Source: Sulfobacillus thermotolerans (lineage in GTDB: Bacteria > Bacillota > Sulfobacillia > Sulfobacillales > Sulfobacillaceae). From it: a stretch of 64,000 bases of DNA. Positions within the stretch are counted from its first letter, which is position 1; each line of letters starts with the position of its first letter. Positions 213 to 22,602 of this stretch are shown here, piece by piece. The position numbers were made by a program, and so were the translations under genes. The notes under the pieces are model-generated. The model saw nothing but the letters and a program-made list of their open reading frames with translations, was not told where the DNA came from and made no database searches. The stretch covers positions 1 to 64,000 of the forward strand of contig CP019454.1 of the NCBI GenBank assembly GCA_002951815.1, written 5' to 3'.

Positions 213-639
213 CAGCAGTTTTTTTTACAGGGAGCGGGCAATCCCGAGACTGGATTTCCCCATGCCACTTCCTTGCCTCTGTATTGACGAAGGTGGGATT
301 AGCAGTAATAATTCCCCAATAGCCACTAGGTCGCATACCGACCACCATTGCCTTCTAAATGACAAATTAATCAATTTTAAGTAATACAACGTCTTATTCT
401 GACTATCCGTATCAGCATGACCAACGACATTTAGTGCCGTAACGGCTTCCATCAAGTTATTACACGAAGCTAAGTTCCGGGGGAGGGGGCGTACGAGACA
501 AAAGACGGTCTGGAGGTCGCCCATTGCAGAAAAGCGGTCCATCGCACCCTACCTGAGCAGATCCCAATGCCGACGAACGGATTATAGCGCGAATTGCCCG
601 TTAACCAGCCACGTTGCAGTTTGCTGGCCGAAGCCCAAA
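213..639. other. No recognisable gene
   Basis: This stretch lies between the last CRISPR repeat and the break point of recD2. Open frames here are short and one of them simply translates the repeats. I see no conserved motif and no RNA gene. It probably holds rearranged DNA left after recD2 was truncated. Confidence 0.5.
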
Positions 640-1267
640 CCAAGTGTTCTGCAATGCGGTCGGCGCTTTTAAATCCGATTCCTCGGATGTCACGAGCCAG
701 GCGGTATGGATTTTCTTGGACCGTGGCTATCGCGTCATCTCCATAAGTTTTAAAAATTCTCACCGCCTGAGCCGTCGACACACCGTGCCCATGCAAGAAC
801 ACCATAATCTGGCGAATAACTTTTTGATCTGACCACGCCTGGCAAATCCTTGCTACGCGCTTTGGACCAATTCCCGGAACCTCTCGCAGCCGATCAGGCG
901 TTTGTTCGATGACCGTGAACACTTGCGTGCCGAATGCCTCAACCAGCCTTTGTGCATACACCGCGCCAATACCTTTGACCATGCCTGAGGCTAAATATTT
1001 TTGGATCCCTAAAACGGTTTGCGGGGGAATAATTTGGAGAAGACGCGCACGAAACTGGCGTCCGTATTCGCGGTCGACCACCCAGTAACCTCTCGCCATC
1101 ACGCTTTCTCCCGGCGTGACCGCCGATGCTTGTCCGGTTACAGGCACCAAGTCCTTCAGTTCTGGAATTTTGACCTGCAAGACGCAAAATCCCGTCTCGG
1201 GGCTATGATACGTCACACGTTCAATTGTGCCTTCCAGCGTATCTTCCGCAGCAACCTGCGACTCCAT
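640..1267 (-). pseudogene. recD2: RecD2-like helicase, N-terminal fragment
   Basis: About 209 N-terminal residues of a RecD-like SF1B helicase remain. The start is an ATG at 1267, preceded by AGGAGG at 1278-1273. The fragment has the N-terminal OB-like segment (residues 10-80, with [15 protein letters not shown]) and the helix-hairpin-helix region (residues 95-209, with [11 protein letters not shown] and [15 protein letters not shown]). Homology stops at about position 640 and the frame runs on to a stop at 470 with unrelated residues. RecD2 is normally about 700 residues or more, so both helicase domains with their Walker motifs are missing. The protein cannot be a helicase. Loss probably came with the rearrangement beside the CRISPR array. 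Confidence 0.8.
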
Positions 1268-1278
1268 CGCATCCTCCT

Positions 1279-1858
1279 TTATCCCTTTCTCATACGGGAA
1301 GACGCTGACACCCCAACGCACCTTATTGTCCATGAAGTCGAGAGTCCGACCATTTTGAGGTTATTCTGACACGAATTATTATCGCCAACAAGCAAATAGG
1401 CTCCTATGACTTTGAGTTCATAATGGTCAGTAACACACACAGCCACCCACTCGTTCTTCCACAAGGATATGACACAAAAGGGACTGTGAGGTCATTGCTA
1501 GCAAAGCTCGTACCTTGTAATGTCCAGCCCGCCATGCTTTCGCAATGTGTTTTTCGATAGCTTCAACCGTTTTTACGCTGAAAAATTAAGAAGAAAGAAT
1601 TATGGTGCGAGCCTAAAGAGGACCAAAGGCTCGTTGTGTGCCGAGGTTTTTTGAAAAATGCACCGTTACACCCGCCCACGACAATCCCTTCAGGCCATTA
1701 CCACGGGGACCCCGACCGCATGAGTGTTGTTGTCAGTACGAATGTTCTTAAGGCCTCTACCCTCAAACCTTCATCCATCCGTGGATCTCGCCGTGGTCTA
1801 GGATCTCCCTGTTTCAAACCGCTATTCCATTTGGCTCCTGTTTTTTGCCCCTAGGTCT
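1279..1858. other. No recognisable gene
   Basis: Intergenic DNA between recD2 and rtcB. Only short open frames without motifs or good ribosome binding sites are present. A weak inverted repeat (CGAGCC/GGCTCG) lies near 1610-1636 without a convincing T run. Confidence 0.4.
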
Positions 1859-3103
1859 TTAGCCTTTAACACATAAGAGCTGTTTCAGTTGATAAACAGG
1901 CTCTACGAGATCATGTTGGGCAGCTATCACGGCATCAATATCTTTATACGCGGCCGGAATTTCATCAACAATAGCGGCATCTTTACGACTCTCTACCCCT
2001 GCTGTTTGAGTTTCGAGATCGGCTGTCGTAAAGCGACGCTTGGCTTCGCCTCGCGACATCTGGCGGCCTGCGCCGTGCGAGCACGAAAAGTAAGAATCAG
2101 GATTACCCTTGCCGCGCACAATGTAACTGTGGGTGCCCATACTCCCAGGAATAATTCCCCATTCGCCACTTCTCGCCGATACGGCACCTTTGCGCGTCAC
2201 ATAAGCTACCGATCCATCAATCGTCATTTCTTCAACATAATTGTGGTGACAATTGATGCTCTGCACGACCTCTGCGTGCTGCGGTAGAAAAGGCGCCACC
2301 GCATTCCACAACAAACTCAACATCATAGCCCGGTTCGTCCGGGCGTAATCTTGGGCCCATGCCAACGCCGTAATGTACTGTGCAAATGACTCTGATCCAG
2401 CAACCAGCCAGGCAAGGTCGCGGTCGGGTAACGTATCGCCGCGTCCTTCGGATTCTTGACGCGCCATCTGGATTGCCACTTCCGCTAATACTTTACCGAC
2501 GTGGCGAGATCCCGAATGCAGCATCAGCCACACCGTTCCCTCTTGATCCATTTGCACTTCAATAAAGTGATTACCGCCGCCCAATGTGCCAATTTGTTTC
2601 CACAAGACGCCTTGTGTCTCGTATTGCACTTTCTTCGAAAATTTTTGCGAAAGTAACAAGCCATGATACCGTTCCCGTAAAGTCCGAAGACGCTGTTCAA
2701 AGGTCTGGTGGGTATCCAGAGACAAGACGTTGTCTAACACACGGTCATTTTTATGCGAAGCAAACCCGACAGGGATGGCCGCTTCAATGGCAGAACGCAT
2801 CGAACCCAGAGTATCCGGCAATTGGTCAACCGTAATGTTAGTCCGGATAGCAGCCATCCCACAACCAATGTCCACGCCCACTGCAGCTGGAATAATAGCG
2901 CCTCGCGTCGGTACCACACTGCCAACGGTGGCTCCCTTTCCCCAATGCACATCGGGCATAATCGCTATAGGCCCGGCTAAAATTGGCAACTGGGCCATCG
3001 TGGCAATTTGCTGTTGGGCTTTTTCCTCGATCGGCAATCCGTCAATGGTCCACATGCGCACGTGGTTCAAGGCTTCCACCTGCCCTTTCTGGTTACTAGC
3101 CAC
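1859..3103 (-). CDS. rtcB: RNA-splicing ligase RtcB
   Basis: RtcB joins RNA 2',3'-cyclic phosphate or 3'-phosphate ends to 5'-OH ends, using Mn2+ and GTP. The 414-residue protein shows the family signature: VGVDIGCGM near residues 75-83 (metal-binding Asp and Cys), GGGNHFIEV and HSGSRHVG in the middle, NCHHNYVEEM, and CSHGAGRQMSR near residue 347, whose His is the guanylylated residue. All these ligands are present, so it should be active. The GTG start at 3103 gives the expected short N-terminus, but its AGGAGG is about 16 bases upstream, so a GTG a few codons further in is possible. No archease gene is adjacent. Its role is probably tRNA or RNA repair after endonuclease damage. Confidence 0.93.
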   Translation of the reverse strand: MASNQKGQVEALNHVRMWTIDGLPIEEKAQQQIATMAQLPILAGPIAIMPDVHWGKGATVGSVVPTRGAIIPAAVGVDIGCGMAAIRTNITVDQLPDTLGSMRSAIEAAIPVGFASHKNDRVLDNVLSLDTHQTFEQRLRTLRERYHGLLLSQKFSKKVQYETQGVLWKQIGTLGGGNHFIEVQMDQEGTVWLMLHSGSRHVGKVLAEVAIQMARQESEGRGDTLPDRDLAWLVAGSESFAQYITALAWAQDYARTNRAMMLSLLWNAVAPFLPQHAEVVQSINCHHNYVEEMTIDGSVAYVTRKGAVSARSGEWGIIPGSMGTHSYIVRGKGNPDSYFSCSHGAGRQMSRGEAKRRFTTADLETQTAGVESRKDAAIVDEIPAAYKDIDAVIAAQHDLVEPVYQLKQLLCVKG

Positions 3104-3397
3104 CCGTGGTCGAAGTGCTCCTCCTTGCGTTCCGGTTTCCAGTCTACCATAGAAGATACAACACCATGGTTGGCCATTCGTAGGTTAGTGCGCTTAGAAA
3201 ACCAATCACCAGAAATAAGTTGAAGGCCGAACTATGCGGCAGATGGAAGTAAGGCAGACGCATGGGTCTGGGATGTCACGTCAACGGGGAACTTCCATAG
3301 ACCACAACGGGCTATCATGCGATGAGCAAACGGCAGCGGATGATTGATTCATCAAGGAGCTTTTCTATGGCCTCGCCTATCTCTCTTAGAGACTCTC

Positions 3398-3519
3398 TTA
3401 AGCCCGCAAATCGCCAATGTGCGACCCGGGATCGTTCTTCAACATGAGTGTTCCTATCACAAGAAGATGCCGCCCATCTAAAAGGGATAATCTTCGACCA
3501 AACGAATGCTATGTTAATT
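3398..3519 (-). pseudogene. Decayed 3' end of a paralogue of the 6152-6619 gene
   Basis: Read on the minus strand, this stretch encodes a run resembling the last 40 residues of the membrane protein at 6152-6619: HSFGRR, then LMLKNDPGSHIGDL, against YSFGRG and VMLKKDPGSKINDL in the intact gene. It contains an in-frame TAG near its 5' end. It has no start, directly follows the stop of the gene at 3520-4059, and ends at a TAA at 3400-3398. It is a fossil of a second copy. Confidence 0.75.
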
Positions 3520-4059
3520 TTATTTGTCCATATCCTCGATTACAAGGTCATCAGCTTCCCGGAAAAATTTTCGCGCCTTTTGATAAAGTCCTTCGTAAAA
3601 TGATATCCAATAAGCCAAAAACAATAAATAAATGAACATCGATAGAGCATGATGCACCACGATGGCCTGTGGCGTTTGGATGCCGCGGGGATGGAGCCAT
3701 TGGATGTGTCCAAACTCCAATCCAAATCGCAACGCAAAGCAAGCTATGACGATACTTTCACCGATGGATGAGACGGTATAACTCACTTCAGTGGTGCGGC
3801 GGCTAAATTGAGTGGTGTGTAAACTCAACACTGCCATTCCCCATCCCGCAATCAACCCTAGAGCCACTCCTGCCCACGAATACAGTCCGTGCACTGCAGC
3901 AATAATCAATAAGGCGGCGCACACAATCGATACCTACAGCCTACCGAGCACAACAACTGGATAAAAGGGATGTCTTTGGCCGTACCATCGGGTTCGCAAG
4001 ACGAGACTCATCGCCACGAGTGCCACGATCGGTATCGCCATCAACCCACGTGATAGCAC
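3520..4059 (-). pseudogene. Small membrane protein, possibly CcdC-like, with an in-frame amber stop
   Basis: A single frame of 180 codons runs from a GTG at 4059 to the stop at 3520, but a TAG at 3936-3934 interrupts it after codon 41. A GGGAGA sequence lies 6-8 bases before the GTG. The downstream 134-residue part is rich in membrane segments (ALLIIAAVHGLYSW, VALGLIAGWGMAVLSL, a segment around IVIACFALRFGLEF, and ALSMFIYLLFLAYWISF) and ends in a charged tail. The pattern of helices and the RRTTEVSYTVS loop recall the DUF1453/CcdC family, but this is a weak guess. If translation restarts at an internal codon, only a shortened protein is made. Frame and base use on both sides of the TAG are intact, so the lesion is recent or a sequence error. 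Confidence 0.6.
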
Positions 4060-4300
4060 ATGTTATCTCCCTTCTTTACCGTACCCAATGACGTACTCCT
4101 AAACCATGGCGAATGATTCTTGAGCATGTTGATGCCATAAGCTCTCGTCGGAGCCCTGTCATGGCCATGCACCTATGCGTACAACACGGCTCGCGGGCAT
4201 TTATGTGACCTTTGTTGGCCAACAACGTGAAAAAACCCATTCCACAGACGCGGACGGCGCCGGGCTTCTCTGCAATCGACATGTCTGGCGGGCTCCCAGA

Positions 4301-5698
4301 TTATGTCGGGGTCGTGCCCTGAGGTGTCGGCTTGTGTGTCCATTCCTTTTCGATTGATTCCAGTGAGCGCCCCTTGGTTTCCGGCACGAGTTTGTAGGCA
4401 AAAATCCACGTACCCACGCCAATAATTCCGTAAATCCAGAACGTATTTCCCCGTCCCGCCCACTGAATTAGGGAGAGAAATGTGAGGGCTACCAGCAGGT
4501 TCGCCGCCCAGTTCATCACGGTAGCGAGGCTCATAGCCCGCCCTCTCACGGCAAGAGGGTAAATCTCGGAAATCAACAGCCAAAACACGGGCCCTAACCC
4601 CACAGCAAATGACGCGACATAAATCATGAGGCTCGCCGCGATCGCCCACGCCAGTATGCCGCTGATATGACGCAAGTGGAAAACCAGCCCCAGTATGCCC
4701 AGACTGACGACCATGCCTGCCGTGCCTGTCAGCAAAAGCGGACGACGCCCAACCTTGTCGATCAAACGGATAGCCACGATCGTCATGAGAACATTGACCA
4801 TGCCAATTCCTACGGTAGCCAAAATCGATACGGTGGCGGAATGGACCCCCGCCATTTCGAAAATGGTGGGGGCATAATAGATAATCGTATTGATTCCTGT
4901 AATCTGCTGGAAAATCGCTAGCCCTATTCCAACGATCAGAGCCGGGCGCAACGCCGGGGTCCACAAACTCGAAGGCCCTGGCGATTTCGGTCCGAGGCTT
5001 CGGTCAATCTCAGCAATTTCCTTGCGCACGTCATCGTGCAGCCGCGCCAAAACCCTTTCAGCTTGTTTTTCTTTCCCATGCTCCAGTAGCCACCGTGGGG
5101 ATTCGGGCAGTAGCACCATGCCAACAAGCAAAATGGTGGCCGGAATGGCGGCCACACCAAACATCGCCCGCCAGTCTCCATTTTTGGCGAAGAGATAGTC
5201 GATCAGATAAGAGAGGACAATACCGGAAGTTAACGCCAGCTGATTCAGCGAGACCAACGCACCACGAATTTTTGCTGGCACGATTTCCGAAATGTATAGA
5301 GGCGCAGTAAAAGACGCCACGCCGATAGCCACCCCCACCCCGATTCGGCCCGCGACCAACAATCCCACGGTAGGCGCCAACGCCGTAAAAATGGCCGCGA
5401 CGGCAAAAACGATGGCGGCGGCGATGATCATCTTCCGGCGTCCAAAATGATCGGCCAGGGGACCGCCCGCCATCGCCCCAAACACGGCGCCCACCAGCAC
5501 GGCTGCCACCACAAACTCTTCAGAACCAGCCGACAAATGAAAGTCTGTCTTGAGAAACAGAATAGCTCCAGAAATCGCTCCCGTATCATAGCCAAATAAC
5601 AAACCCGCTACGGCTGCGACAACAGCGATGGGAAGTGCCGCCCGCATAGCCGCCCGAGAAGACAAGCTGGCACCGGTGCCTTGAGTCGGTTGACTCAT
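4301..5698 (-). CDS. MFS sugar porter (sugar:H+ symporter)
   Basis: A 465-residue, twelve-helix transporter of the sugar porter family. Signatures in order: LLFGYDTGAISGAI in TM1, PLADHFGRRK in the TM2-3 loop, RIGVGVAIG, PESPRWLLEHGK after TM6, QQITGINTIIYYAPTIF in TM7, KVGRRP, and VPETKGRSLE after TM12. The ATG at 5698 has GGGGAGGA seven to eight bases upstream. It should import a hexose or pentose by proton symport, favoured in an acid environment; the sugar cannot be told from sequence. It is a single-gene unit with no metabolic genes beside it. Confidence 0.93.
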   Translation of the reverse strand: MSQPTQGTGASLSSRAAMRAALPIAVVAAVAGLLFGYDTGAISGAILFLKTDFHLSAGSEEFVVAAVLVGAVFGAMAGGPLADHFGRRKMIIAAAIVFAVAAIFTALAPTVGLLVAGRIGVGVAIGVASFTAPLYISEIVPAKIRGALVSLNQLALTSGIVLSYLIDYLFAKNGDWRAMFGVAAIPATILLVGMVLLPESPRWLLEHGKEKQAERVLARLHDDVRKEIAEIDRSLGPKSPGPSSLWTPALRPALIVGIGLAIFQQITGINTIIYYAPTIFEMAGVHSATVSILATVGIGMVNVLMTIVAIRLIDKVGRRPLLLTGTAGMVVSLGILGLVFHLRHISGILAWAIAASLMIYVASFAVGLGPVFWLLISEIYPLAVRGRAMSLATVMNWAANLLVALTFLSLIQWAGRGNTFWIYGIIGVGTWIFAYKLVPETKGRSLESIEKEWTHKPTPQGTTPT

Positions 5699-5788
5699 TA
5701 CTATTCCTCCCCATGTCTATGTTCATACGAGCTTTCGCCGACATTTTCGCGAGGACGCCGCCCTTGGCTTGGATAACGGTCAACAGGT

Positions 5789-5817
5789 ATCACAGTAATA
5801 CTTTGACGACAGGTCAA
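5789..5817 (-). promoter_or_regulatory. Possible sigma-A promoter of the sugar porter
   Basis: On the minus strand TTGACC (5817-5812) and TGTGAT (5794-5789) are separated by 17 bases, about 90 bases upstream of the sugar porter start. The -35 is good and the -10 weak. Confidence 0.35.
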
Positions 5818-6091
5818 TACCATTGATGTTAAACGGCGTGATTTCATGGACGCAATGGACCTCGAATACAATCATCGGGAGTGATGCCGAGCTTTACGAG
5901 CAAAATCTGATTTCTTACCCCTAAGGGAGATCCCTATGCGTACGTCTGTGCCTGCCCTACGAATAGCCTACCATGGTTTTCTCAACGAGAAGGCATCCGT
6001 TAACCGTTAAAGCCCTAGGGAGATGCTCACTCCGGCAAGGCCCTGTGACAGAGCGTAATTCATGACTCACATGAGTTCCATGACGGCGCAT
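5818..6091. other. Intergenic, nothing seen
   Basis: No open frame with support and no RNA motif between the sugar porter promoter and the terminator of the next gene. Confidence 0.4.
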
Positions 6092-6129
6092 AAAGAAAAA
6101 AGGTCTTAGAGCGGTCCTCTCTAAGGCCT
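6092..6129 (-). terminator. Intrinsic terminator of the 6152-6619 gene
   Basis: An 11-bp stem (6101-6111 with 6119-6129, one G-U pair, 7-base loop) is followed on the minus strand by a T-rich run at 6100-6092. Confidence 0.8.
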
Positions 6130-6151
6130 AGGACACCTTGCGCAAGAATTC

Positions 6152-6619
6152 TTAGTCGAGCAAATCATTAATTTTCGATCCGGGATCCTTCTTTAACATG
6201 ACAATGCCCATTATTAAGAGGTATAGCCACGCGATGAGAGAAAAACCCCGACCAAACGAATACTGCGCAAATTGAAGATGGCCAACTAAAGGCGCCTTAT
6301 TAATACCAAACGGCAAGGCCACCAAGCCTGAGACAAAGTACATGGTCATGTTGTACGCCGTAAAGAGAATCGGCAACAGATAGTACCGGCGCAACCCAAG
6401 TAGATACACCACTGCAATCAAGCCGTAAGTCGCCGTTTCAATATCAATCCAGTACGAGACAATAGGGGTAGAGCCAGGGCTGGCAAACAAGTGCGCGGCA
6501 ACGTCCACCAGCGCGAAAAATACCATCGACAAACGCAGCCAGTCGAGTCCTGGATGTTGTGGCGAAATAATGTGGGTCGCAGGCTCTTTGGCAAGATTCT
6601 TCATGGGATTCGTCATCAC
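6152..6619 (-). CDS. Small four-helix membrane protein of unknown function
   Basis: About 155 residues. A short hydrophilic N-terminus (TNPMKNLAKEPATH) is followed by four likely membrane segments: LRLSMVFFALVDVAAHLF, ATYGLIAVVYLLGL, YLLPILFTAYNMTMYFVSGL and LIAWLYLLIMGIVML. It ends with a charged tail, KKDPGSKINDLLD. The start is a GTG at 6619 or the next codon, ATG at 6616, with GAAAGGA 7 or 10 bases upstream. It has its own terminator. I do not recognise the family. A decayed copy of its 3' end lies at 3398-3519, so the gene was once duplicated. Confidence 0.75.
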   Translation of the reverse strand: MMTNPMKNLAKEPATHIISPQHPGLDWLRLSMVFFALVDVAAHLFASPGSTPIVSYWIDIETATYGLIAVVYLLGLRRYYLLPILFTAYNMTMYFVSGLVALPFGINKAPLVGHLQFAQYSFGRGFSLIAWLYLLIMGIVMLKKDPGSKINDLLD

Positions 6620-6721
6620 AGCCACATCCTTTCTTTTGGCAAAACCATAATGATTACAAAACAACCATACTATGACGCCTACTTTGTGAAGTGGGTCACA
6701 AGGCCTGAGATCTCCAGACAT

Positions 6722-7087
6722 CGGTCGCTAGGTCGAAGGTCTAATGGTCCCCCACTCTACGGCTGAAAGGCCATACGGTTTATGGGCATCGGACGTCTTA
6801 GAAGCACCTATATTCGTCAATGACGAGTAATGCGTTCAACTTATTAAGATAATACCAAACGGTCACACGCAAACCTACCACCAGCCGGTCTTGAATAGAG
6901 ATTGCCCATGACTATGTGCATAATAAGGTATAATAGGACCATAGAATGGTGGGCTTTTCATTTTTTACAGAGTTTTCCGCCCGACACAAACGAACCCTTT
7001 GCACCCATCCTTATGCCTCGCGCCATTTGTAGAAACCCGCACCACGGCTAAGGCGTGAACACGACGCACACGGATTAGAAAAGGGGA
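6722..7087. other. Intergenic with a possible promoter for the helicase
   Basis: No gene seen. A TATAAT occurs near 6931-6936 on the plus strand, but no well-placed -35 accompanies it. The stretch is AT-rich and may hold the promoter of the helicase gene. Confidence 0.35.
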
Positions 7088-8812
7088 GTGGTCTCAACGA
7101 CAAGCGACAACCAGTACACAAGCGCAGAAGCTCCAGGCACCATGATGACATGGACAGCCGATCAAGAAGCGTTTCTTAACGTGCTTGAGCGCACCAACTG
7201 GCAGCGCATTGCGCTCATTGCTCCAGCTGGGACTGGTAAAACCACCGTGCTCGAAGAATTCGCCAGGCGTTTGGGACGCGCAGCTCCCGTCCTCTTTCTG
7301 GTCTCCACCCACCAAACCAAGGCGTTGGTTCAAGACCACCTGCCAGCCCCCATTGCAGTCAAAACCTTTGCAGACCTCGCCCACGAAAGTTTTCCCGGCT
7401 CCGACGAGGTGTCTTCCTGGAGCTTGCCGCAACTCCGTCAAGTGATTGCCCCACAGATTGACCAATTCGGCACCTTATATGCCGACGATGTCCAGCAATG
7501 GATTCGGGAGTACTGTCTCATGCCCGGTGATGAGCCGTGGAGTACGTGGGCTCAAACCAAAGCCCATGCCTTCGATGGCCCAACCGTCCATGAGCGCTTA
7601 ACCGCGCTCATCTCCGATGGACAAGCTCTATGGGACGCCTGTGAAACTCAAGCCTTGCCGTATCTTTCCGAGATGTTGCTCAAACGCTTTGTACGTCAGC
7701 ATCCCGTACATGATATCCCCTTCATTATTGTGGACGAAGCGGAAAACGAGGGCGTTATCTTTAAGCAGTGGCTGGTTATGCAAACAGCGCGTGAAATCTT
7801 AGCAGCGGACCCGACGGGTATCGAATCTAAAGACCCTACAGAGCCAAACCTTCTGCTTGACCTCCCCGTGGACCACGTCTTTACTCTGGACGCTTCCTTC
7901 CGCTTGGCGGATAGCGCGGCCGAACGCGCCACGCGTATTATGAACTGGCGCACGAATCGCCCCACGCTCAAAGGTCTAGGCGCTTGTGAAGTCAAAGTCC
8001 AAGATAGCATAGTGGGAAGGCGGCCTTTAACGCTGATTGCCCGCTATAATATGAGCCTCCTCGAGAAAATGATTGATATCAGCATGGCATATCATAGTAC
8101 GTTTCTCTATTTCTATTGGGATGCCAGCGGCTTATGGCAAGACGTCAACAGCGCTTACCGGCTATGGGCCCGGGAACGTGGATTTAGTTGGACATGGCAT
8201 GGCGAACGCTGGACCAACTATCATGAATGGCTGCAAAAAATGACTGTAGCCAAAAATTCGGAGGCCATGACCTTAGCCTCCCTTATTAAGAAACACGGCA
8301 GGCGCCTGCCCGTTATCATGCAGCAAGTCCAAAATCAGATTGTCGACACCATCGAACCGACGACCGTCGTTCTAACCACGGCGGAAAATGCTCGCGGGCG
8401 CGAGTGGGACATGGTACAAATTCTGGACGACTTTATTCCGCTGCCACAATTGAGCCTCGCGTACAAAACGCGGCGTCAAACGCGTCAGCATGCGTTAAGC
8501 GCTCCGCGCGCGGCCTACGAGGTACAATTGTTGTATCTTGCCATGACCCGTGCCCGCCGCACCTTATGGATTCCCTCATCGGTTGATACCTGGCTACACC
8601 CTACCTGGCAAACGTTCTTTGACAACGTCTTGAGCGCCCAGCAGCGCGCTTTGTGGAACCTTCACGAAAATTACGAGCAAACTGCCGAACAGGTTGTGCA
8701 AGGAGGCAAATGGACCGCCGATGAGCTAGCGCGTGCTTGGGCTTTGATGCAAGAACACTGGTCTCATTGGAGCGGAGGTCAGCCTTGGCCAGGTCATGAA
8801 ATATGGGAGTAA
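7088..8812 (+). CDS. UvrD/Rep-like superfamily 1 helicase, short form
   Basis: A 574-residue SF1 ATPase. A Q-motif-like TADQEAFL is followed by Walker A APAGTGKTT (about residue 48), a Walker B-like FIIVDEAEN (about residue 217), the motif V-like TTAENARGREWD (about residue 435) and motif VI LYLAMTRARRTLWIP (about residue 485). Canonical UvrD, Rep and PcrA are near 700 residues, so the 1B/2B insertions must be small. The GTG at 7088 is very close to its AGGGG, and ATG codons at 7142 and 7145 are alternatives. It probably unwinds DNA in repair or acts in a nucleic-acid defence role; no partner gene is adjacent. It ends just before a terminator shared with the convergent thioredoxin gene. Confidence 0.82.
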   Translation: MVSTTSDNQYTSAEAPGTMMTWTADQEAFLNVLERTNWQRIALIAPAGTGKTTVLEEFARRLGRAAPVLFLVSTHQTKALVQDHLPAPIAVKTFADLAHESFPGSDEVSSWSLPQLRQVIAPQIDQFGTLYADDVQQWIREYCLMPGDEPWSTWAQTKAHAFDGPTVHERLTALISDGQALWDACETQALPYLSEMLLKRFVRQHPVHDIPFIIVDEAENEGVIFKQWLVMQTAREILAADPTGIESKDPTEPNLLLDLPVDHVFTLDASFRLADSAAERATRIMNWRTNRPTLKGLGACEVKVQDSIVGRRPLTLIARYNMSLLEKMIDISMAYHSTFLYFYWDASGLWQDVNSAYRLWARERGFSWTWHGERWTNYHEWLQKMTVAKNSEAMTLASLIKKHGRRLPVIMQQVQNQIVDTIEPTTVVLTTAENARGREWDMVQILDDFIPLPQLSLAYKTRRQTRQHALSAPRAAYEVQLLYLAMTRARRTLWIPSSVDTWLHPTWQTFFDNVLSAQQRALWNLHENYEQTAEQVVQGGKWTADELARAWALMQEHWSHWSGGQPWPGHEIWE

Positions 8813-11170: not shown

Positions 11171-12337
11171 TCAGGCAGACACGGGTGAGGAGCTCCTCAC
11201 CGAACTCTCGGCCACGGTTCGCAAATTAATCGCCGCATTGATGTCGCGGTCGTGGTGTGTGTGACATTCTGGGCACGTCCACTCCCGCATAGCGAGCGGC
11301 ATTTTCGGCATTTTGTATCCACACGCGGAACACGTTTTGCTGCTCGGATACCAACGGCTCACGATGACCACCGTTTTCCCGCATTGGGCCGCTTTGTATG
11401 CGAGTTGCCGACGGAATTCCCCAAAGCCCATATCAGCAATCGCCCGGGCGAGAGGATGATTTTTGAGCATCCCGGCGACGTTCAGGTCCTCGATGGCCAT
11501 GACATCGAAGCGCTGCACGAGATCGGTGGTCAGTTGGTGTAACGCATCCGCCCGGATATTCGCAATCCGCGCATGGCGTCGGGCCATGCGCCGCTGCGTC
11601 TTTCGCATATTCTGGGACAAGGGCATGGGCATCCCTTTCAGGGTGGGCTGGCCGGGCTGAAGCCCGGCGCGGACTTTGGCGACTTCCATCTGGCGACTGA
11701 ATTGTTTCGATAACCGACGAAGCTGTGCCAAGGCGTCCGCATAGGCTTTCGGTCCCACGATCGCCAACGCCGACACGCCCAAATCCACGCCGACTACCGC
11801 TTGGCTTTCGCGGCGGACACTGGGGGGATCGGGAAGTTCGACGGTGACGCTCAAAAACCAGCGATCAGCGGTCCGCGACACGGTGCCTTCTACCACTCTG
11901 CCGATAAATCGCAACGGTTCGTGCATGCGCACCCAGCCTAATTTGGGCATATGCACTTTTTGCCCTTTGACCGTGAATGGGTCGTTGGTGAGCGTAAAGC
12001 TGTCGTGTCGGCCCTTTTTCTTAAACGTGGGATACTCGGCGATCCCCGCAAAGAAATTCTTGAACGCTTGACCCAAGTGCATAATCGCCATCTGGGGGGC
12101 GTTCTTGGTAACCTCCAGCATCCAGGGGAAGGCGGCGCGCTTGAGTGCATTGAGTTGACGCCGCAGAGCGGCTTCGGTCGGCTTGGGCAACGTAGGATCG
12201 GCTTTCCATGCGTCGAACTGTTGTTGCCACTGATCCAAGGCCCCATTGTACGCGAAACGGGCCGTCCCGGCGGCCTTGCGGAAATACGTCTCTTGAACGT
12301 TATTCGGGTCGAGCGCAATCTTATGGGCCAGAATCAT
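11171..12337 (-). CDS. tnpB: TnpB RNA-guided nuclease, with a small internal deletion
   Basis: 388 residues. The RuvC-like catalytic set is visible: Asp in VVGVDLGVSA, Glu in AIEDLNVAGM, a zinc finger CSACGYKMPKMP...CPECH, and Asp in DRDINAAINL. Compared with copy B it lacks seven residues (TLSTGEK) just after the first catalytic Asp and has YNG in place of the YNW motif near the N-terminus. The deletion removes a strand of the RuvC fold, so this copy may be inactive. Its guide would be read from the flank beyond 11019. It overlaps the upstream tnpA by four bases (ATGA). Confidence 0.9.
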   Translation of the reverse strand: MILAHKIALDPNNVQETYFRKAAGTARFAYNGALDQWQQQFDAWKADPTLPKPTEAALRRQLNALKRAAFPWMLEVTKNAPQMAIMHLGQAFKNFFAGIAEYPTFKKKGRHDSFTLTNDPFTVKGQKVHMPKLGWVRMHEPLRFIGRVVEGTVSRTADRWFLSVTVELPDPPSVRRESQAVVGVDLGVSALAIVGPKAYADALAQLRRLSKQFSRQMEVAKVRAGLQPGQPTLKGMPMPLSQNMRKTQRRMARRHARIANIRADALHQLTTDLVQRFDVMAIEDLNVAGMLKNHPLARAIADMGFGEFRRQLAYKAAQCGKTVVIVSRWYPSSKTCSACGYKMPKMPLAMREWTCPECHTHHDRDINAAINLRTVAESSVRSSSPVSA

Positions 12338-12963
12338 GATGACGCCTCCTCCACGGCGTGTTTCACGCCGTCGAGCAATTTTTGGTTCTTGCGGGAGCGG
12401 CTGCCGTAGAGCCGAGCCGAAAACACGGTGATTATTTCGAGGACGTCTTGAGCCAGCTCTTCCTCAAAGGTCGTGTCCTCGCCTTGATTGAGAATCACCA
12501 CCTCCACCTGCTTGGCTTCGCAGATCGCAAAGACGAGCTCCGCCCCAAAGCGCACGAGACGGTCCTTATGGGTCACAACCAGCCGACCGACCCGGTTGGC
12601 GAGGATGTCATTTAAGAGGCGCTTGAGACCCTTTTTGTGATAATTCATCCCGGATCCGAGATCCGCCACGACCTCAAAGGTCCACCCTTGACGGGCACAA
12701 TAGATCTCCAGCACGTGCTTTTGCCGCTCCAGATCGTCTTTCTGGTCGTGGCTCGATACGCGGGCATAGGCGACGGTTTTGCGACGCGGGCTGCGTCGGT
12801 GAAACTGGTCAGGTCGCAACCGGGCCAAGTCGTAACGCCGATACCCACCCGCTGTGCGTTCATCGGGCAACAACGTTCCTTCGTGGTCCCATCGACGTAA
12901 CGTCGATGGGGTCACACCTAAAAATTCCGCCGCTTCACGAATGCCGACAAGTTTTCTATGCAT
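12334..12963 (-). CDS. tnpA: IS607 TnpA serine recombinase
   Basis: 209 residues from the ATG at 12963. An N-terminal MerR-like helix-turn-helix (IREAAEFLGVTPSTLRRWDHEG) precedes a serine-recombinase domain beginning VAYARVSSHDQKDDLERQ, where the first Ser is the nucleophile. LVVTHKDRLVRFG and the C-terminal ARLYGSRSRK are also conserved. A promoter (TTTACC, 18 bases, TATAAT) ends six bases before this ATG, which implies a leaderless mRNA. A TTG further upstream (12978) lies above the -10 box and is unlikely to be the start. This copy has all key residues and is probably active. Confidence 0.92.
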   Translation of the reverse strand: MHRKLVGIREAAEFLGVTPSTLRRWDHEGTLLPDERTAGGYRRYDLARLRPDQFHRRSPRRKTVAYARVSSHDQKDDLERQKHVLEIYCARQGWTFEVVADLGSGMNYHKKGLKRLLNDILANRVGRLVVTHKDRLVRFGAELVFAICEAKQVEVVILNQGEDTTFEEELAQDVLEIITVFSARLYGSRSRKNQKLLDGVKHAVEEASS

Positions 12964-13073
12964 ACCTAAATTATACAATAATGGGTAACCATAGGTAAAC
13001 TTTTAGCAAACTGTTAAAACCCCTTTTTTTACACCCCAATTTGTCCTCAGATGTCCTCCTCGTTATTAAGATT

Positions 13074-17707: not shown

Positions 17708-18010
17708 GTCCAGGTAATCGCAAGACCTTCAAGAAGGCCCAAAACGTGGCATGAAAGGGCTCCGGCAGCGACACGGAGCGGGAACCATCAGGCTGTGGGG
17801 TCACTTGGAGCGCTCGCAGGTGGCGAAAGAGTTCATGGGCCGTAGGGCGCGTCAAGACGCGCCGCGATGGCGAGGAATCGGGACGGCCCTGTCACGGAGG
17901 CGCCGTTCGAGCAGGCTATACAACAGGGCCACCATCAAGACCACGTAGCCCAAGGCCTCCAACCGTTCTGGGATCTTGAGAAACAGCGCGTGGGACACTA
18001 GGGCCGGAGC
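17706..18010 (-). pseudogene. IS1634-like transposase, C-terminal fragment with frameshift
   Basis: Two overlapping minus-strand frames together encode a typical IS1634/DUF4277 transposase tail. ALVSHALFLKIPERLEALGY and LLYSLLERRLRD in the first frame continue as LTRPTAHELFRHLRALQV in the second, with a frameshift near 17855. The upstream DDE catalytic part is missing. Both ends of the fragment meet solitary tnpB-type right ends in opposite orientation. Confidence 0.7.
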
Positions 18011-18155
18011 GGTCCGAGTTACGCCTGGGGAGATCGACGTAAGACGGCCGTCGTCAACGGCGAAGCCGCAGGGGATCCATGATCCATGAACCTCCGGGAG
18101 CGATCCCGGAACTCCCCGCCTCAACCCGCTAGGGTTAGGCGGCGGGATAGTTCAT
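17998..18155 (+). repeat. Solitary right end of an IS1341-type tnpB element, copy Z
   Basis: On the plus strand, ACTAGGGCCGGAGCGGTCCG at 17998 is followed by CTGGGGAGATCGACGTAAG, several hairpins and GATAGTTCAT at 18155. The order matches the right end of the tnpB element at 20991-22600 and copy Y. Only a few tnpB codons remain in front. Bases after 18155 would be the guide of an omega RNA made from here. Confidence 0.7.
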
Positions 18156-18286
18156 TACCGCGCAACGGCACACGGGTTATAGGTACCGGGCAGTCGCTGC
18201 CGCGTTGCGATGGAAACATGCCAAAGTACGGGTTTCGCCGAAACTATAAAATAACCTCGGACGAGTTGGTGGGCGTTTCCGCGAAT

Positions 18287-19036
18287 TTATTTGACCGCAC
18301 CCGTCATGTGAGAATCGATCGTGTTCGCATAGTGGCGCTGCTTTTTGCTAAATTGCCGTGACCACCGCACAACAAAGGGGGAGAGGGTCGGCGCCCAATA
18401 CCACGTGACGGGCACCGGAGGAATGACTTTTTGTGGGGTATTGACCGGGAGATCCGCGCCGCACTGGCTCCATCGGGTGGTTTTGTCGGGCACGGGTGGG
18501 ACGCCCGTGATCTCACTCAAGACCGTGACGAGATCGCCCGAGGGACGGCGAATACGGCCAATCCAGACCCCTGGTTTGGCCGTGCGCGTCGCATACGGGA
18601 TGACCATCCAGTCTTCCAATAGCCCCGTCTCCCATTGGCGGCGATTTTTCCAGAGCACCAAGACCCCTAAGGAAAATATCACCCCCACTATCGGACCTAA
18701 GCCGATGGTCAACACAAATTGCGCGGCGTTGGCGACCGTGCCCCCCATGGCATGAGCAAACGCCTTTTGCGCGCCCAACAGCACGACGAGGAGCAAGGCA
18801 ATACCAAAAAGAACAAAGATGCCCAAGAGACCCACCATAAAGCCAAAGCCGGCGGCCCCAAACACCGAATCCGTCATCCACCGCCCAATGCCCCAATGAG
18901 GTCCCGTGCCATCAAACGGCCACGGACTGCGTTCGCGCACAATACGAAAAGTCCGGTGCAAAGTCCAGATCACAGGACCCGCCAACAGGACTATGATCCC
19001 TGCCCAAACGATTGCCGACACAACAGGTTCGCTCAT
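18287..19036 (-). CDS. Membrane protein coupled to the RHS tail, candidate immunity protein
   Basis: 249 residues. Three or four membrane segments: AIVWAGIIVLLAGPVIWTLH, FGFMVGLLGIFVLFGIALLL, and FVLTIGLGPIVGVIFSLGV running into VLVLWKN. A cytosolic C-terminal half of about 110 residues follows (EDWMVIPYATRTAKPGVW, RRPSGDLVTVLSEITGVPP). The ATG at 19036 is three bases from the RHS stop and its GGAGGG lies inside the last RHS codons, so the two are translationally coupled. No family recognised. Position and coupling fit an immunity protein for the RHS C-terminal toxin; this is inference. Confidence 0.75.
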   Translation of the reverse strand: MSEPVVSAIVWAGIIVLLAGPVIWTLHRTFRIVRERSPWPFDGTGPHWGIGRWMTDSVFGAAGFGFMVGLLGIFVLFGIALLLVVLLGAQKAFAHAMGGTVANAAQFVLTIGLGPIVGVIFSLGVLVLWKNRRQWETGLLEDWMVIPYATRTAKPGVWIGRIRRPSGDLVTVLSEITGVPPVPDKTTRWSQCGADLPVNTPQKVIPPVPVTWYWAPTLSPFVVRWSRQFSKKQRHYANTIDSHMTGAVK

Positions 19037-19039
19037 ATT

Positions 19040-19768
19040 CTACCCTCCATATTTGAATCCGGATGTTGTGGGAAAACCCGTCGTAATGTCATGGAGCCAG
19101 GACGACACAGGCAACGTCCACGGAGCGGTGGCTAAGGCATAATGTCCGATGAAAATGCTGGAGGCATAACTAGCCATCGGCTGCTCGGCACCAAGTTGAG
19201 TCAGACCCTTAGCCAGGATACCATTTAATGCGCCAAAGCCAAAACTGTAAATAAAGTCACTGCCTACCGAATTCAACGAAAATACCTGCCCTTCGGTTCC
19301 TAACGCAGCAAGATTCGTGGCAAACAGGGTGCTACTAGAGGCCACAGCGTTCCCAATTTGACCCAAGTCAAATGAGAGGGAACCGACTTCACCCCCATAT
19401 ACGCCGCTGACACCGCCCCCGATAGTATCCACAAGGACGGTGTTGAACTTCTGTCCGGCGGACATGTGATTAGGAAGTACTAAGGTCGTGAGGAGGCCAC
19501 TGGCCAGTCCAAGCCCTGCCCCAATCGCCGCCCCGACCAATCCCTCATGCCCGGTAGGGTCTACCAGTACTGTGGGAGCATTTCCAGCGTAACTATATGA
19601 TGATGTCGCGAATTGGCTATCCGGCGTGAGATATTGACCTAGGGCTGGCAAGTAGTACCGAGAGCCGACGTGACCGAGCACAAGCCCATGAGTGCCTCCT
19701 AGAGTGGATTGAGAATAGCCACCATATCCATAGGCTAAGGCCGAGGTTGGGCTGCTAGAAGAAAACTC
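19040..19768 (-). pseudogene. RHS-repeat protein 3' end with C-terminal effector region
   Basis: Open frame of 242 codons without a usable start; it begins after a TGA at 19771-19769. It encodes the last RHS repeat strands (YGYGGYSQSTLGGTHGLV), the core motif GSRYYLPALGQYLTPDSQF...YSYAGNAPTVLVDPTGHE, and then about 170 residues of variable C-terminal domain, rich in Gly and hydrophobic residues (AAIGAGLGLASGLLTTLVLP, DTIGGGVSGVYGGEVG). Full RHS proteins have over 1,000 residues, so the body is lost, or this is a displaced C-terminal cassette. The C-terminal region has no nuclease motif I can see; its composition suggests a membrane-acting effector. Confidence 0.75.
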
Positions 19769-19796
19769 TCAAGAAGTGTGGTGAGCTTTTCGAGTG

Positions 19797-19835
19797 AAGC
19801 ACCAGTATTCCGACATCGGAACACTGGTGCTTTTT
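19797..19835 (+). terminator. Terminator hairpin upstream of the RHS remnant
   Basis: AAGCACCAGT and ACTGGTGCTT arms, with an inner TTCC/GGAA stem, are followed on the plus strand by TTTTTAT. No plus-strand gene now ends here, so it may be a relic of a lost gene. Confidence 0.65.
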
Positions 19836-19955: not shown

Positions 19956-20495
19956 TTATAAGCCTTGCTTGTCGCTTTCCACCTCTGCGGTTATCGCTGT
20001 CCGAATTAGCTGCATCGGAATGAAGAGATCCAACGACTGCCCTAGCCGACAAAATCCGAGCCGTTCGTAAAAGGGGATGAGGTGGACGGTCTTGGCTTGG
20101 ACTAGCACTCCAGCTAATCCGATGTCCGCCTGGAGACGTTCGGCGCGCTTCAGAGCATCAGCCACTAAAGCGGATCCGATTCCTTGACCTTGAATTGTCG
20201 TCGAGATCCCTAATCGTCCCAATAAGGCGACAGGAACTAAGGGATATTTGGGATACAATTTAATCCATTCCGTCGGCAAGTGACCTAGTTATATCGTCGC
20301 GGCTGATAGGGTATAAAATCCGCTAACCTCTAAAGGCTGTATCGTATCGATTAGCACGTACACGACCGACACGCCGCGTTTCATGTTTTGATAAGCGTAC
20401 TGGTGGAACCACCGATCTAGTTCGGCATCTCCAGAGGAAAACGACGCGCGATGATGCTCTCGTCGCAATTTTTCCATGCGATACGTCGCTGGCAT
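19956..20495 (-). pseudogene. GNAT toxin of a TacA-TacT type module, in-frame stop
   Basis: One frame of 180 codons from ATG 20495 to the stop at 19956, broken by a TAA at 20291-20289. The N-terminal part (FSSGDAELDRWFHQYAYQNM, VSGFYTLSAATI) and the C-terminal part (YPLVPVALLGRLGIS, QGQGIGSALVADALKRAERL, FYERLGFCRL) together make a complete TacT-like tRNA acetyltransferase with the acetyl-CoA motif QGQGIG. With the stop, no active enzyme is expected. Six bases separate it from the upstream DUF1778 antitoxin. Confidence 0.85.
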
Positions 20496-20501
20496 AGGTG
20501 A

Positions 20502-20792
20502 CTAATCCGACTCAATCATTTCGTCGTGACGTCTCATCGCGTCACGCAGAGCTTGCGGGGAACGCGCAGTTTGATCCAGCAGCATTTCGGTAAATTGTCG
20601 GCTCACCATCTCGCTCAGTTGGATGTGCTGATGCCGCGCCAAGACGTCTTCGGCATGATGTTTGACGGCTACGAGCACAAAATCCGAAAGACTCAAACCT
20701 TCCATAGCGGCCGCTGTTTCGATCAACTGTTTATCTTCGGGCCGCAGACGAGTTTCTAAACGGGCCGTCCGATTCTTATTCATGGTAACCAT
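20502..20792 (-). CDS. DUF1778 antitoxin (TacA-like)
   Basis: 96 residues. An N-terminal ribbon-helix-helix (RTARLETRLRPEDKQLIETA, then GLSLSDFVLVAVKHHAE) binds DNA, and a C-terminal helix normally wraps the GNAT toxin. GGAGGG lies six bases before the ATG at 20792, which overlaps a TATACT. It heads the toxin-antitoxin operon and should repress it. The antitoxin gene looks intact while the toxin gene is broken, as expected for a decaying module. Confidence 0.88.
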   Translation of the reverse strand: MVTMNKNRTARLETRLRPEDKQLIETAAAMEGLSLSDFVLVAVKHHAEDVLARHQHIQLSEMVSRQFTEMLLDQTARSPQALRDAMRRHDEMIESD

Positions 20793-20990: not shown

Positions 20991-22602
20991 ATGAACTCTC
21001 CCCCCGCCTGGCTACGCCGAGGCGGGGGTTTCGGGGTCGCCCCCAAAGCTTTCCTGGCTCATTGATCGCTGCGTCGAGGCCGTAGGCCCCAGACGGCTTA
21101 CGCCGATCTCCCCATGCGTCACTTCGGACCGTTCCGGCCCTAGTTTCCGAAAAATCCGCGTGGTTTTGTGAGTTCTGGTCAGCGGATCGCCGGAAAGAAG
21201 CTTTTGGACCCCCCGCTTCGCGATCACCACGGCCGCATTGTGGTCGGCATCATCGGTGTGTCCGCAGCGTTGACAGACAAATGCCGCCTGTGAAGGCCGA
21301 TTGTCCGGGGCAGTGAATGTGCAGACAGCACATTCCTGCGAACTATACGCGGATAGTACGGTGATGACCAGCTTGCCATGACGCAATGCTTTATAGGTGG
21401 TAAACGAGACGACTTGTCCCCAAGCCGACGACAAGATAGCGCGGTTGAGCCCGGCTTTGGCGGCCGCTTGATTGGGCAGAAACCGTCCTTGAGCATCCGT
21501 TTTGGCCTTGGGGCGTTTGGTCATCGTTTGGATCTTCAGAGCCTCGAACACATACAAATCATAGGCCTCATCGGCGGCCAAATGATGACTCGTTTGATGG
21601 GCATAGTCCTGTCGGACATTCGTTTCGTATTGCTGATACTTCGCCACTTTGCGATAGGCTTTCTTCTGATTTTGCGATCCTTTCTTCCTGCGAGAAGCCT
21701 GTCGTTGCCAGCGTTTGCGTTGCCGGCGGGTCTTCTTGATCCGTTTCTTCTGCACGGGCAGGAGGTCAAAGACCTGCCCATCCGAGGTGGTCAGGGGCTT
21801 GGCAACGCCCCGATCTCCACCGAGCGTCCGTGCGGTAAGTTGCTCCGCCGAAAGATGCCGTAAATCCTCAGCAATTTGTTCCGTGGTGGCGTCTCGCGTT
21901 TTCTTGGGCATCGTTACCTCGGCATCCTCGGCTGCGAAAGACAGCCACCAGTGGCCGCCTTCCACGGCGATGTGAATCGAAGACGGTACGCCATGCGACC
22001 GATGCGCCACGTAAGCAATGACCCCGACCGGAAACTTCTGCGTGCCTAGAATCAACTGATACGATGCGATCGCGCCGGTCTCATTGATGAGCGGGACGAA
22101 CTGGAATAACTCATCGGTGACCCAGACAATCTGCCGTCCGCTTTTTTTCTTGATTTTTGGACGCCCTCCGAGCTTCTGAAAGAAGCGTGCATAGGCTTGT
22201 TTGAATTTGACGGCCCCATTGCTCAAGATCTGCGAGGGCACCTGTTTGAGAAAGGCGGTTTTCTCCGTGATAAAGCGGCTATACTCCTAATCGACGGGAA
22301 TTTTCTCGCCCGCCGTGCCGACCATGCATTGAGCAAATCGACGAAAATAGCGATCCTCTTGGACTTTCGCGTTATAGATACCCCGTTGGCACCCGATCCA
22401 CCGGGACTCGGATACAGGCGAAACCGATAGCCGTTAAGCAGGGCGAATCACCCCCAGCGAACAACCGGCCACGGAATACGCAAGATTAAGCGGCCAAATG
22501 GCCGCTGCCCGCTTGACCCCCTCCTGGCCTGCGGCCAAGGAATGGGGAATGCGCGGGCGTGTTGTTCAATCGACCCACTTCGCCCGCGTTGCCAAGTGGG
22601 TC
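20991..22602 (-). mobile_element. IS605/IS1341-type element with a decayed tnpB
   Basis: The right end is at about 20991 (terminal AGTTCAT on the minus strand), with a strong hairpin at 21002-21026; it recurs at 17540 and 18155. The left end is not fixed by comparison. Two hairpins before the gene (GCGGCC-AAAT-GGCCGC at 22489-22504 and a 9-bp stem at 22572-22602) are candidate left-end structures. There is no tnpA, so transposition would need one in trans. Confidence 0.6.
21012..22438 (-). pseudogene. tnpB: TnpB nuclease gene with deletion, frameshift and amber stop
   Basis: The main open frame (22241-21012, 409 codons) holds the RuvC-like core: GGDRGVAKPL, LYVFEALKIQ, the zinc finger CAVCTFTAPD...CQRCG and DADHNAAVV. 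In the same frame upstream, YNAKVQEDRYFRRFAQCMVG and EYSRFITEKTAFLKQVP are plainly TnpB, but a TAG at 22289-22287 separates them. Further upstream, GYRFRLYPSP is in another frame, so a small deletion removed part of the N-terminus. Internal initiation at the GTG at 22241 would yield a protein without the wedge/REC N-terminus. It is presumably inactive. Confidence 0.82.

What the first reader, a model, noticed from the sequence alone, without database searches (positions are those of the whole stretch)
18287..19768. RHS C-terminal cassette with a coupled membrane partner
The RHS core motif is followed by a 170-residue variable domain with no known motif, then, three bases after its stop, by a membrane protein whose ribosome binding site lies inside the toxin gene. 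This is the usual layout of polymorphic toxin and immunity genes. The toxin part is Gly-rich and hydrophobic and the partner is polytopic, which together suggest a membrane-acting toxin. The pair may be undescribed.
Basis: partly seen in the sequence, partly recalled or inferred. Interest (0 to 1): 0.6.

Follow-up and report, generated by a model that had tools for sequence, protein, structure and literature searches.

The report
Truncated RHS toxin tail with partner
A broken copy of a secreted bacterial competition toxin survives here as only its variable tail plus the membrane protein that probably protects the producer; the pair is a rare, apparently unnamed toxin–immunity type of a familiar kind, and this strain no longer has the rest of the toxin gene.

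Summary
The layout is real. A Gly-rich 168-residue domain follows an RHS core on the minus strand. Three bases after its stop comes a 249-residue membrane protein whose ribosome binding site lies inside the upstream gene. The pair is conserved at about 70% amino-acid identity, in the same order and coupling, in two other genomes of the genus; codon changes indicate purifying selection. Neither part matches Pfam, PADLOC, PHROGs or PDB, and only the core tail matches NCBIfam. The family is narrow: the tail occurs in 3 of 154 genomes of the class, and nowhere else credible in 398 sampled across the phylum.

Homology stops near window 19735–19768; about 1,250 codons (signal peptide, Ig-like domain, RHS repeats) are gone, no other RHS gene was found in the genome, and no convincing start remains. 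A full-length 1,487-codon version exists in one relative; the second relative is also 5'-truncated, next to an IS66-type element.

Best reading: a decayed WapA-like RHS polymorphic toxin whose tail acts on membranes, as Tse5, EsxX and TspA do, with a 3-TM immunity protein. Membrane action is inferred. New member of a known kind; modest interest.

The parts
19547..19768 (-). Remnant of the RHS core: last ~65-74 residues of an RHS repeat protein; homology to relatives ends within 19735-19768
   Evidence: TIGR03696 E 8.8e-9; matches only residues 550-610 of the 610-residue core query; nucleotide homology ends near 19735
19040..19546 (-). 168-residue Gly-rich C-terminal domain (presumed toxin tip) with stop codon TAG
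   Evidence: 71% and 68% aa identity to tips of RHS genes in G003 and G002; no family or PDB match; NG86 dN 0.19-0.24 against dS 1.27-1.43
19034..19052 (-). Translational coupling zone: GGAGGG ribosome binding site inside the toxin gene, TAG stop, AAT spacer, then the partner ATG
   Evidence: Sequence; equivalent coupling in L012 and L013
18287..19036 (-). Presumed immunity protein, 249 aa: three TM segments (5-23, 68-86, 108-126) and a ~120-residue soluble C-terminal part, predicted cytoplasmic by the positive-inside rule
   Evidence: ORF; hydropathy; charges; homologues in G003 72%, G002 69% directly after the RHS tip; single-sequence model of low confidence
19769..19800 (.). Junction where the missing RHS 5' part should begin; sequence from about 19785 onward belongs to a TacA/GNAT-type toxin-antitoxin module
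   Evidence: Stop codon directly upstream in frame; 19785-20121 matches G004:C2 at 76%, a genome without RHS match; TacA1 and GNAT domains

Best explanation
This is the 3' end of a decayed RHS polymorphic-toxin locus. In the apparently intact form (relative G002) a signal peptide, an Ig-like domain and an RHS/YD-repeat shell carry a C-terminal 168-residue tip out of the cell, WapA-style. The tip, which is probably helical, almost uncharged and Gly-rich with no recognisable catalytic motif, most likely inserts into the cytoplasmic membrane of competitors and depolarises it. The co-translated 3-TM protein sits in the producer's membrane and blocks insertion or assembly. In the window strain the RHS gene has lost its 5' ~1,250 codons, so the toxin is not exportable as such; what may still be useful is immunity against neighbours that carry the intact toxin. 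Shown: RHS origin, truncation, conserved coupled pair, purifying selection over the lineage, partner copies without the tip. Inferred: toxicity, membrane target, immunity function, residual role. My separate estimates: toxin-immunity pair 0.75; membrane-acting tip 0.5; no exported toxin in this strain 0.85.
For: Conserved tip+partner order and coupling in three genomes. Full-length RHS gene with signal peptide, Big_1-like domain (below Pfam's cut-off), DUF6531 and 12 RHS repeats in G002. Tip searches hit only these three genomes in 154 of the class. Partner copies without the tip are mostly decayed (G002:C123, G024:C41), like orphan immunity genes. A different RHS locus in a same-order genome (G035) carries another tip, followed by repeats of that tip's end and of a downstream gene, so polymorphic RHS loci exist in the lineage. 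Tip: 17-20% Gly, 3-4 Lys/Arg in all, GRAVY about +0.5 to +0.6, glycines selectively invariant. Partner: three TM segments in all three homologues. Experimentally known parallels: Tse5/Tsi5 (PMC9637101), EsxX/ExiCD and TspA/TsaI (PMC12744356). Genome has no other RHS match.
Against: No experiment. Only one tip segment clearly passes a TM hydropathy threshold (6-24); a second passes in one homologue only. GxxxG motifs are not clearly above composition. The tip model has pLDDT 38 and carries no information. An intact but divergent partner homologue in G005 has no RHS nearby, so the partner family may have another role. The canonical Rhs autoprotease motif is not present in full. No same-core/different-tip pair was found within the genus.
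Confidence: 0.55

Rival explanations
1. Toxin-immunity pair, but the tip is a soluble or enzymatic toxin of unknown fold; its Gly-rich first helix only helps the tip cross or dock at the membrane, and the membrane partner is immunity by another route, for example guarding a membrane receptor or a membrane-linked target.
For: Strong hydropathy only at residues 6-24. A few invariant polar residues exist (IGHY, WLHD, D and E positions). The partner has a sizeable conserved soluble part, which could bind a soluble tip.
Against: No enzyme family match at permissive thresholds. Composition is almost uncharged and Gly/Ala/Ser-rich throughout. Partner has three TM segments, unlike the usual small soluble immunity proteins.
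Confidence: 0.25
2. Not a toxin: the tail is the ordinary membrane-proximal end of an RHS surface protein and the partner is an accessory for its secretion, anchoring or display.
For: Tail evolves at about the same pace as the partner, with no sign of tip swapping among the three genomes. An RHS-free partner homologue exists (G005).
Against: Partner copies persist without RHS, some decayed, which suits immunity better than an export accessory. Tip and partner survive in two genomes that lost the RHS 5' part. A related RHS locus with an unrelated tip exists in the order.
Confidence: 0.15
3. In the window strain the whole remnant is a dead pseudogene with no current function, including the partner (compatible with the best explanation for the intact form).
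For: Promoter and start lost; neighbourhood full of mobile-element pieces (TnpB element 21012-22241, lone TnpB-end repeat 17994-18159, split TacA/GNAT module). Tip codons on the window branch show slightly more replacement changes than the other branches (35:26 against 46:63, p = 0.08).
Against: Both frames are open over 168 and 249 codons, and the partner shows no excess of replacements (42:41 against 75:93, p = 0.42).
Confidence: 0.4

Closest known systems
Tse5/Tsi5 (Rhs pore-forming effector of Pseudomonas aeruginosa and its membrane immunity protein)
   Same: RHS/YD shell with a short C-terminal tip lacking enzyme motifs; adjacent integral-membrane immunity protein (two predicted TM regions in Tsi5; PMC9637101)
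   Different: Tse5 is T6SS cargo with a PAAR-like N-terminus, here a signal-peptide RHS protein; Tse5 has the full DPXG-X19-DPXG autoprotease motif (PMC10684867), incomplete here; partner has three TMs plus a soluble domain; no sequence match found
EsxX/ExiCD and TspA/TsaI (T7SS glycine-zipper membrane-depolarising toxins of Staphylococcus aureus)
   Same: Gly-rich membrane toxin domain at the C-terminus of a secreted protein of a Gram-positive bacterium, neutralised by membrane proteins; ExiCD genes also occur as orphans (PMC12744356)
   Different: LXG carrier and T7SS export rather than RHS and a signal peptide; ExiCD is a two-protein set; no sequence relationship shown
WapA-type RHS/YD-repeat polymorphic toxins of Bacillota
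   Same: Secreted YD-repeat protein with polymorphic tip and immunity gene directly downstream (recalled; PMC12704120, listed, is a recent WapA example, abstract only)
   Different: Known WapA tips are mainly nucleases with soluble immunity proteins (from memory); this tip and partner match no listed family

Membership tests
RHS polymorphic toxin | RHS/YD-repeat region ending in the RHS-associated core directly before the tip | tested here: met
   TIGR03696 in the window remnant; RHS repeats and DUF6531 in the G002 homologue. In the window itself only the core tail is left.
RHS polymorphic toxin | Immunity-like gene immediately downstream, co-occurring with the tip | tested here: met
   All three tip-bearing genomes have the coupled partner.
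RHS polymorphic toxin | Same carrier with different tips in related strains | tested here: inconclusive
   RHS carriers are rare here. G035 carries an RHS gene with a different tip, but its repeat region is only 26-33% identical. No tip swap seen within the genus.
RHS polymorphic toxin | Autoprotease motif DPXG-X18/19-DPXG at the end of the core (found in many, not all, Rhs proteins) | tested here: not met
   Only the second half (DPTG/DPSG) is present. The first is PDSQ/PDGQ, and the two Asp are 20 apart instead of 22-23 (sequence; motif from PMC10684867). Release of the tip by self-cleavage is therefore doubtful; the motif is described for Enterobacteriaceae-type Rhs, so this bears on mechanism more than on RHS membership.
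RHS polymorphic toxin | Complete exportable gene in this genome | tested here: not met
   5' ~1,250 codons missing; no other RHS match in the genome. The window locus is a relic of the family, not a working member.
Tse5-like Rhs pore-forming toxins | Sequence relationship of tip or immunity protein to Tse5-CT/Tsi5 | tested here: inconclusive
   No PDB sequence match of the tip profile at E up to 10, but the Tse5 tip is disordered and no direct comparison was made; partner matches only ryanodine receptor segments at E 0.007 or worse, judged chance. Works-like claim only.
Glycine-zipper membrane-depolarising toxins | Extended GxxxG zipper beyond what composition gives | tested here: inconclusive
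   8-10 GxxxG against 4.7-6.1 expected, p 0.05-0.06; conserved G5, G9, G13, G17 series.
Glycine-zipper membrane-depolarising toxins | Depolarises membranes | not testable with these tools
   Needs expression and membrane-potential assay.

The most novel reading that the evidence does not exclude
Tip and partner form a new membrane toxin-immunity family that has detached from its RHS carrier in two of three genomes and now persists as a stand-alone membrane addiction or immunity module.
Probability: 0.12. Interest if true: 0.5.

Novelty: new member of a known kind. Interest (0 to 1): 0.27.

Why it matters
If the inference holds, it adds an RHS-delivered membrane-depolarising tip with a polytopic immunity protein carried by a signal-peptide RHS protein. 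The same principle is documented for T6SS Rhs (Tse5) and T7SS LXG toxins, but I found no report of it for a signal-peptide RHS protein (a limited literature search). It also shows how RHS loci decay in this genus while leaving tip and partner intact. In this genome alone it is a relic.

Tried and rejected
Pfam, NCBIfam, PADLOC and PHROGs for both proteins: nothing beyond the RHS core tail. Weak GtrA, AmaP and ryanodine-receptor matches of the partner were rejected as hydrophobic-composition matches. Phylum-wide profile hits at E 0.002–0.006: the two tip hits were inspected (L039, L040) and are not RHS proteins, so chance. Plasmid protein searches and viral contigs: no relatives. The allowed genome-contig scan returned one MAG contig (WH4.bin11) of 52,552 bases, the same length as G002:C123 and also with a partial partner, presumably the same locus. 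First RHS-core query and two alignments failed on frame errors and were redone.

Full report
What is there. On the minus strand the frame 19768→19040 encodes the last part of an RHS core (TIGR03696, E 8.8e-9, residues 29–74 of the frame) followed by 168 residues with no match in Pfam, PADLOC, PHROGs or PDB sequences. After TAG and three bases AAT, ATG opens a 249-codon gene; its GGAGGG ribosome binding site is inside the upstream gene.

The frame begins directly downstream of a stop codon, and only the last ~65–74 residues of the RHS part are present. A search of the whole 3.3-Mb single-contig genome with a 610-residue RHS query finds only this remnant (residues 550–610 of the query), and a search with the tip finds only itself. 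DNA homology with relatives ends near 19735; from about 19785 the sequence belongs to a TacA/GNAT module that matches another relative. The best in-frame start (GTG at 19681) sits about 13 bases from an AGGAGG, poor spacing (reading). So the toxin gene is a 3' relic.

Relatives. In 61 related genomes the tip occurs in two others of the same genus, G002 and G003, each followed at once by the partner. In G002 the gene is complete in appearance: 1,487 codons with a signal peptide, a Big_1-like domain, DUF6531, 12 RHS repeats, core and tip. In G003 it is a 457-codon remnant adjoining an IS66-type transposase gene, and no upstream half was found. Thus two of three carriers lost the 5' part while tip and partner stayed open. 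The pair lies at unrelated places: the best match of the window's UppP/BacA neighbour lies 1.7 Mb away from the cassette in G003. Tip identity is 68–73%, partner 68–72%.

Selection. NG86 gives dN 0.17–0.24 with dS 1.27–1.58 for the tip and dN 0.20–0.24 with dS 1.8 or more for the partner; dS is near saturation, so ratios are rough (YN00 gives lower dS for the tip, 0.68–0.77), but constraint is clear. Window-branch changes show a slight, non-significant excess of replacements in the tip (35:26 against 46:63, p = 0.08) and none in the partner (42:41 against 75:93, p = 0.42). This would fit a relaxed toxin beside a maintained immunity gene but proves nothing.

Distribution. Profiles of tip and partner against 154 genomes of the class hit 3 and 5 genomes. 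Partner copies without the tip are a 5'-truncated one in G024, a decayed one in G002:C123, and an intact 28%-identical gene in G005 without RHS. In 398 phylum genomes there are only chance-level hits. None in plasmids or viral contigs.

How it probably works. The tip is 17–20% Gly, nearly uncharged, GRAVY about +0.5, with one strong and one marginal hydrophobic segment. Glycines are much more conserved than other residues (26/29 against 73/139, p = 1.4e-4), including the series G5, G9, G13, G17. No conserved catalytic motif was recognised. The partner has TM segments at 5–23, 68–86 and 108–126; charges (loop 1 and C-terminal part positive) put the N-terminus outside and the ~120-residue C-terminal part in the cytoplasm. 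I infer a membrane-inserting, depolarising toxin with a membrane immunity protein, by analogy with Tse5/Tsi5 (PMC9637101; PMC10684867) and EsxX/ExiCD and TspA/TsaI (PMC12744356). For EsxX, too, the membrane immunity genes occur as orphans in strains without the toxin, which matches the pattern seen here. Structure prediction could not help (pLDDT 38 and 54 without an alignment).

Membership. It meets the defining features of an RHS polymorphic-toxin tip–immunity pair, except that the Rhs autoprotease motif is incomplete (first DPXG replaced by PDSQ/PDGQ, Asp–Asp spacing 20) and that no tip exchange on the same carrier was seen in the genus. A same-order genome has another RHS gene (26–33% identical repeats) with a different tip and downstream repeats of that tip's end, so the lineage does use polymorphic RHS loci. 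No sequence link to Tse5, EsxX or TspA was found, and no direct comparison was made.

Verdict. Observation partly confirmed, interpretation partly supported. New member of a known kind; here a relic. Interest 0.27.

Noticed in passing
window 17994-18159 (+) and 20991-21143 (-): A ~165-base repeat: one copy is the 3' end of a TnpB gene element (likely omega-RNA/right end), the other stands alone just beyond the partner gene in the opposite orientation. Dozens of copies of this end occur in G001 and others.
   Followed up: partly
window 19956-20792 (-): TacA/GNAT-type toxin-antitoxin module whose acetyltransferase appears split into two frames (20289-20495 and 19956-20279) beside an intact TacA1 antitoxin.
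   Followed up: partly
window 11171-12978 (-): IS607-type pair: MerR-resolvase recombinase and a TnpB-like gene.
   Followed up: no
L045 (G035:C1:2505500-2516000), about 216-4037: Downstream of an RHS gene with a different tip, tandem repeats of the tip's C-terminal end and of a following gene: an apparent orphan tip-immunity cassette array.
   Followed up: no
L012 (G003) 1950-6181: Peptidase-C39-like exporter, membrane-fusion-like and ABC transporter genes upstream of the IS66 element and truncated RHS gene, looking like a bacteriocin export cluster.
   Followed up: no
L046 (G031) 2556-7679 and L047 (G007) 2155-2868: RHS genes of other relatives are also broken, the one in L046 between IS66-type genes, so decay of RHS genes seems frequent in this family.
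   Followed up: no
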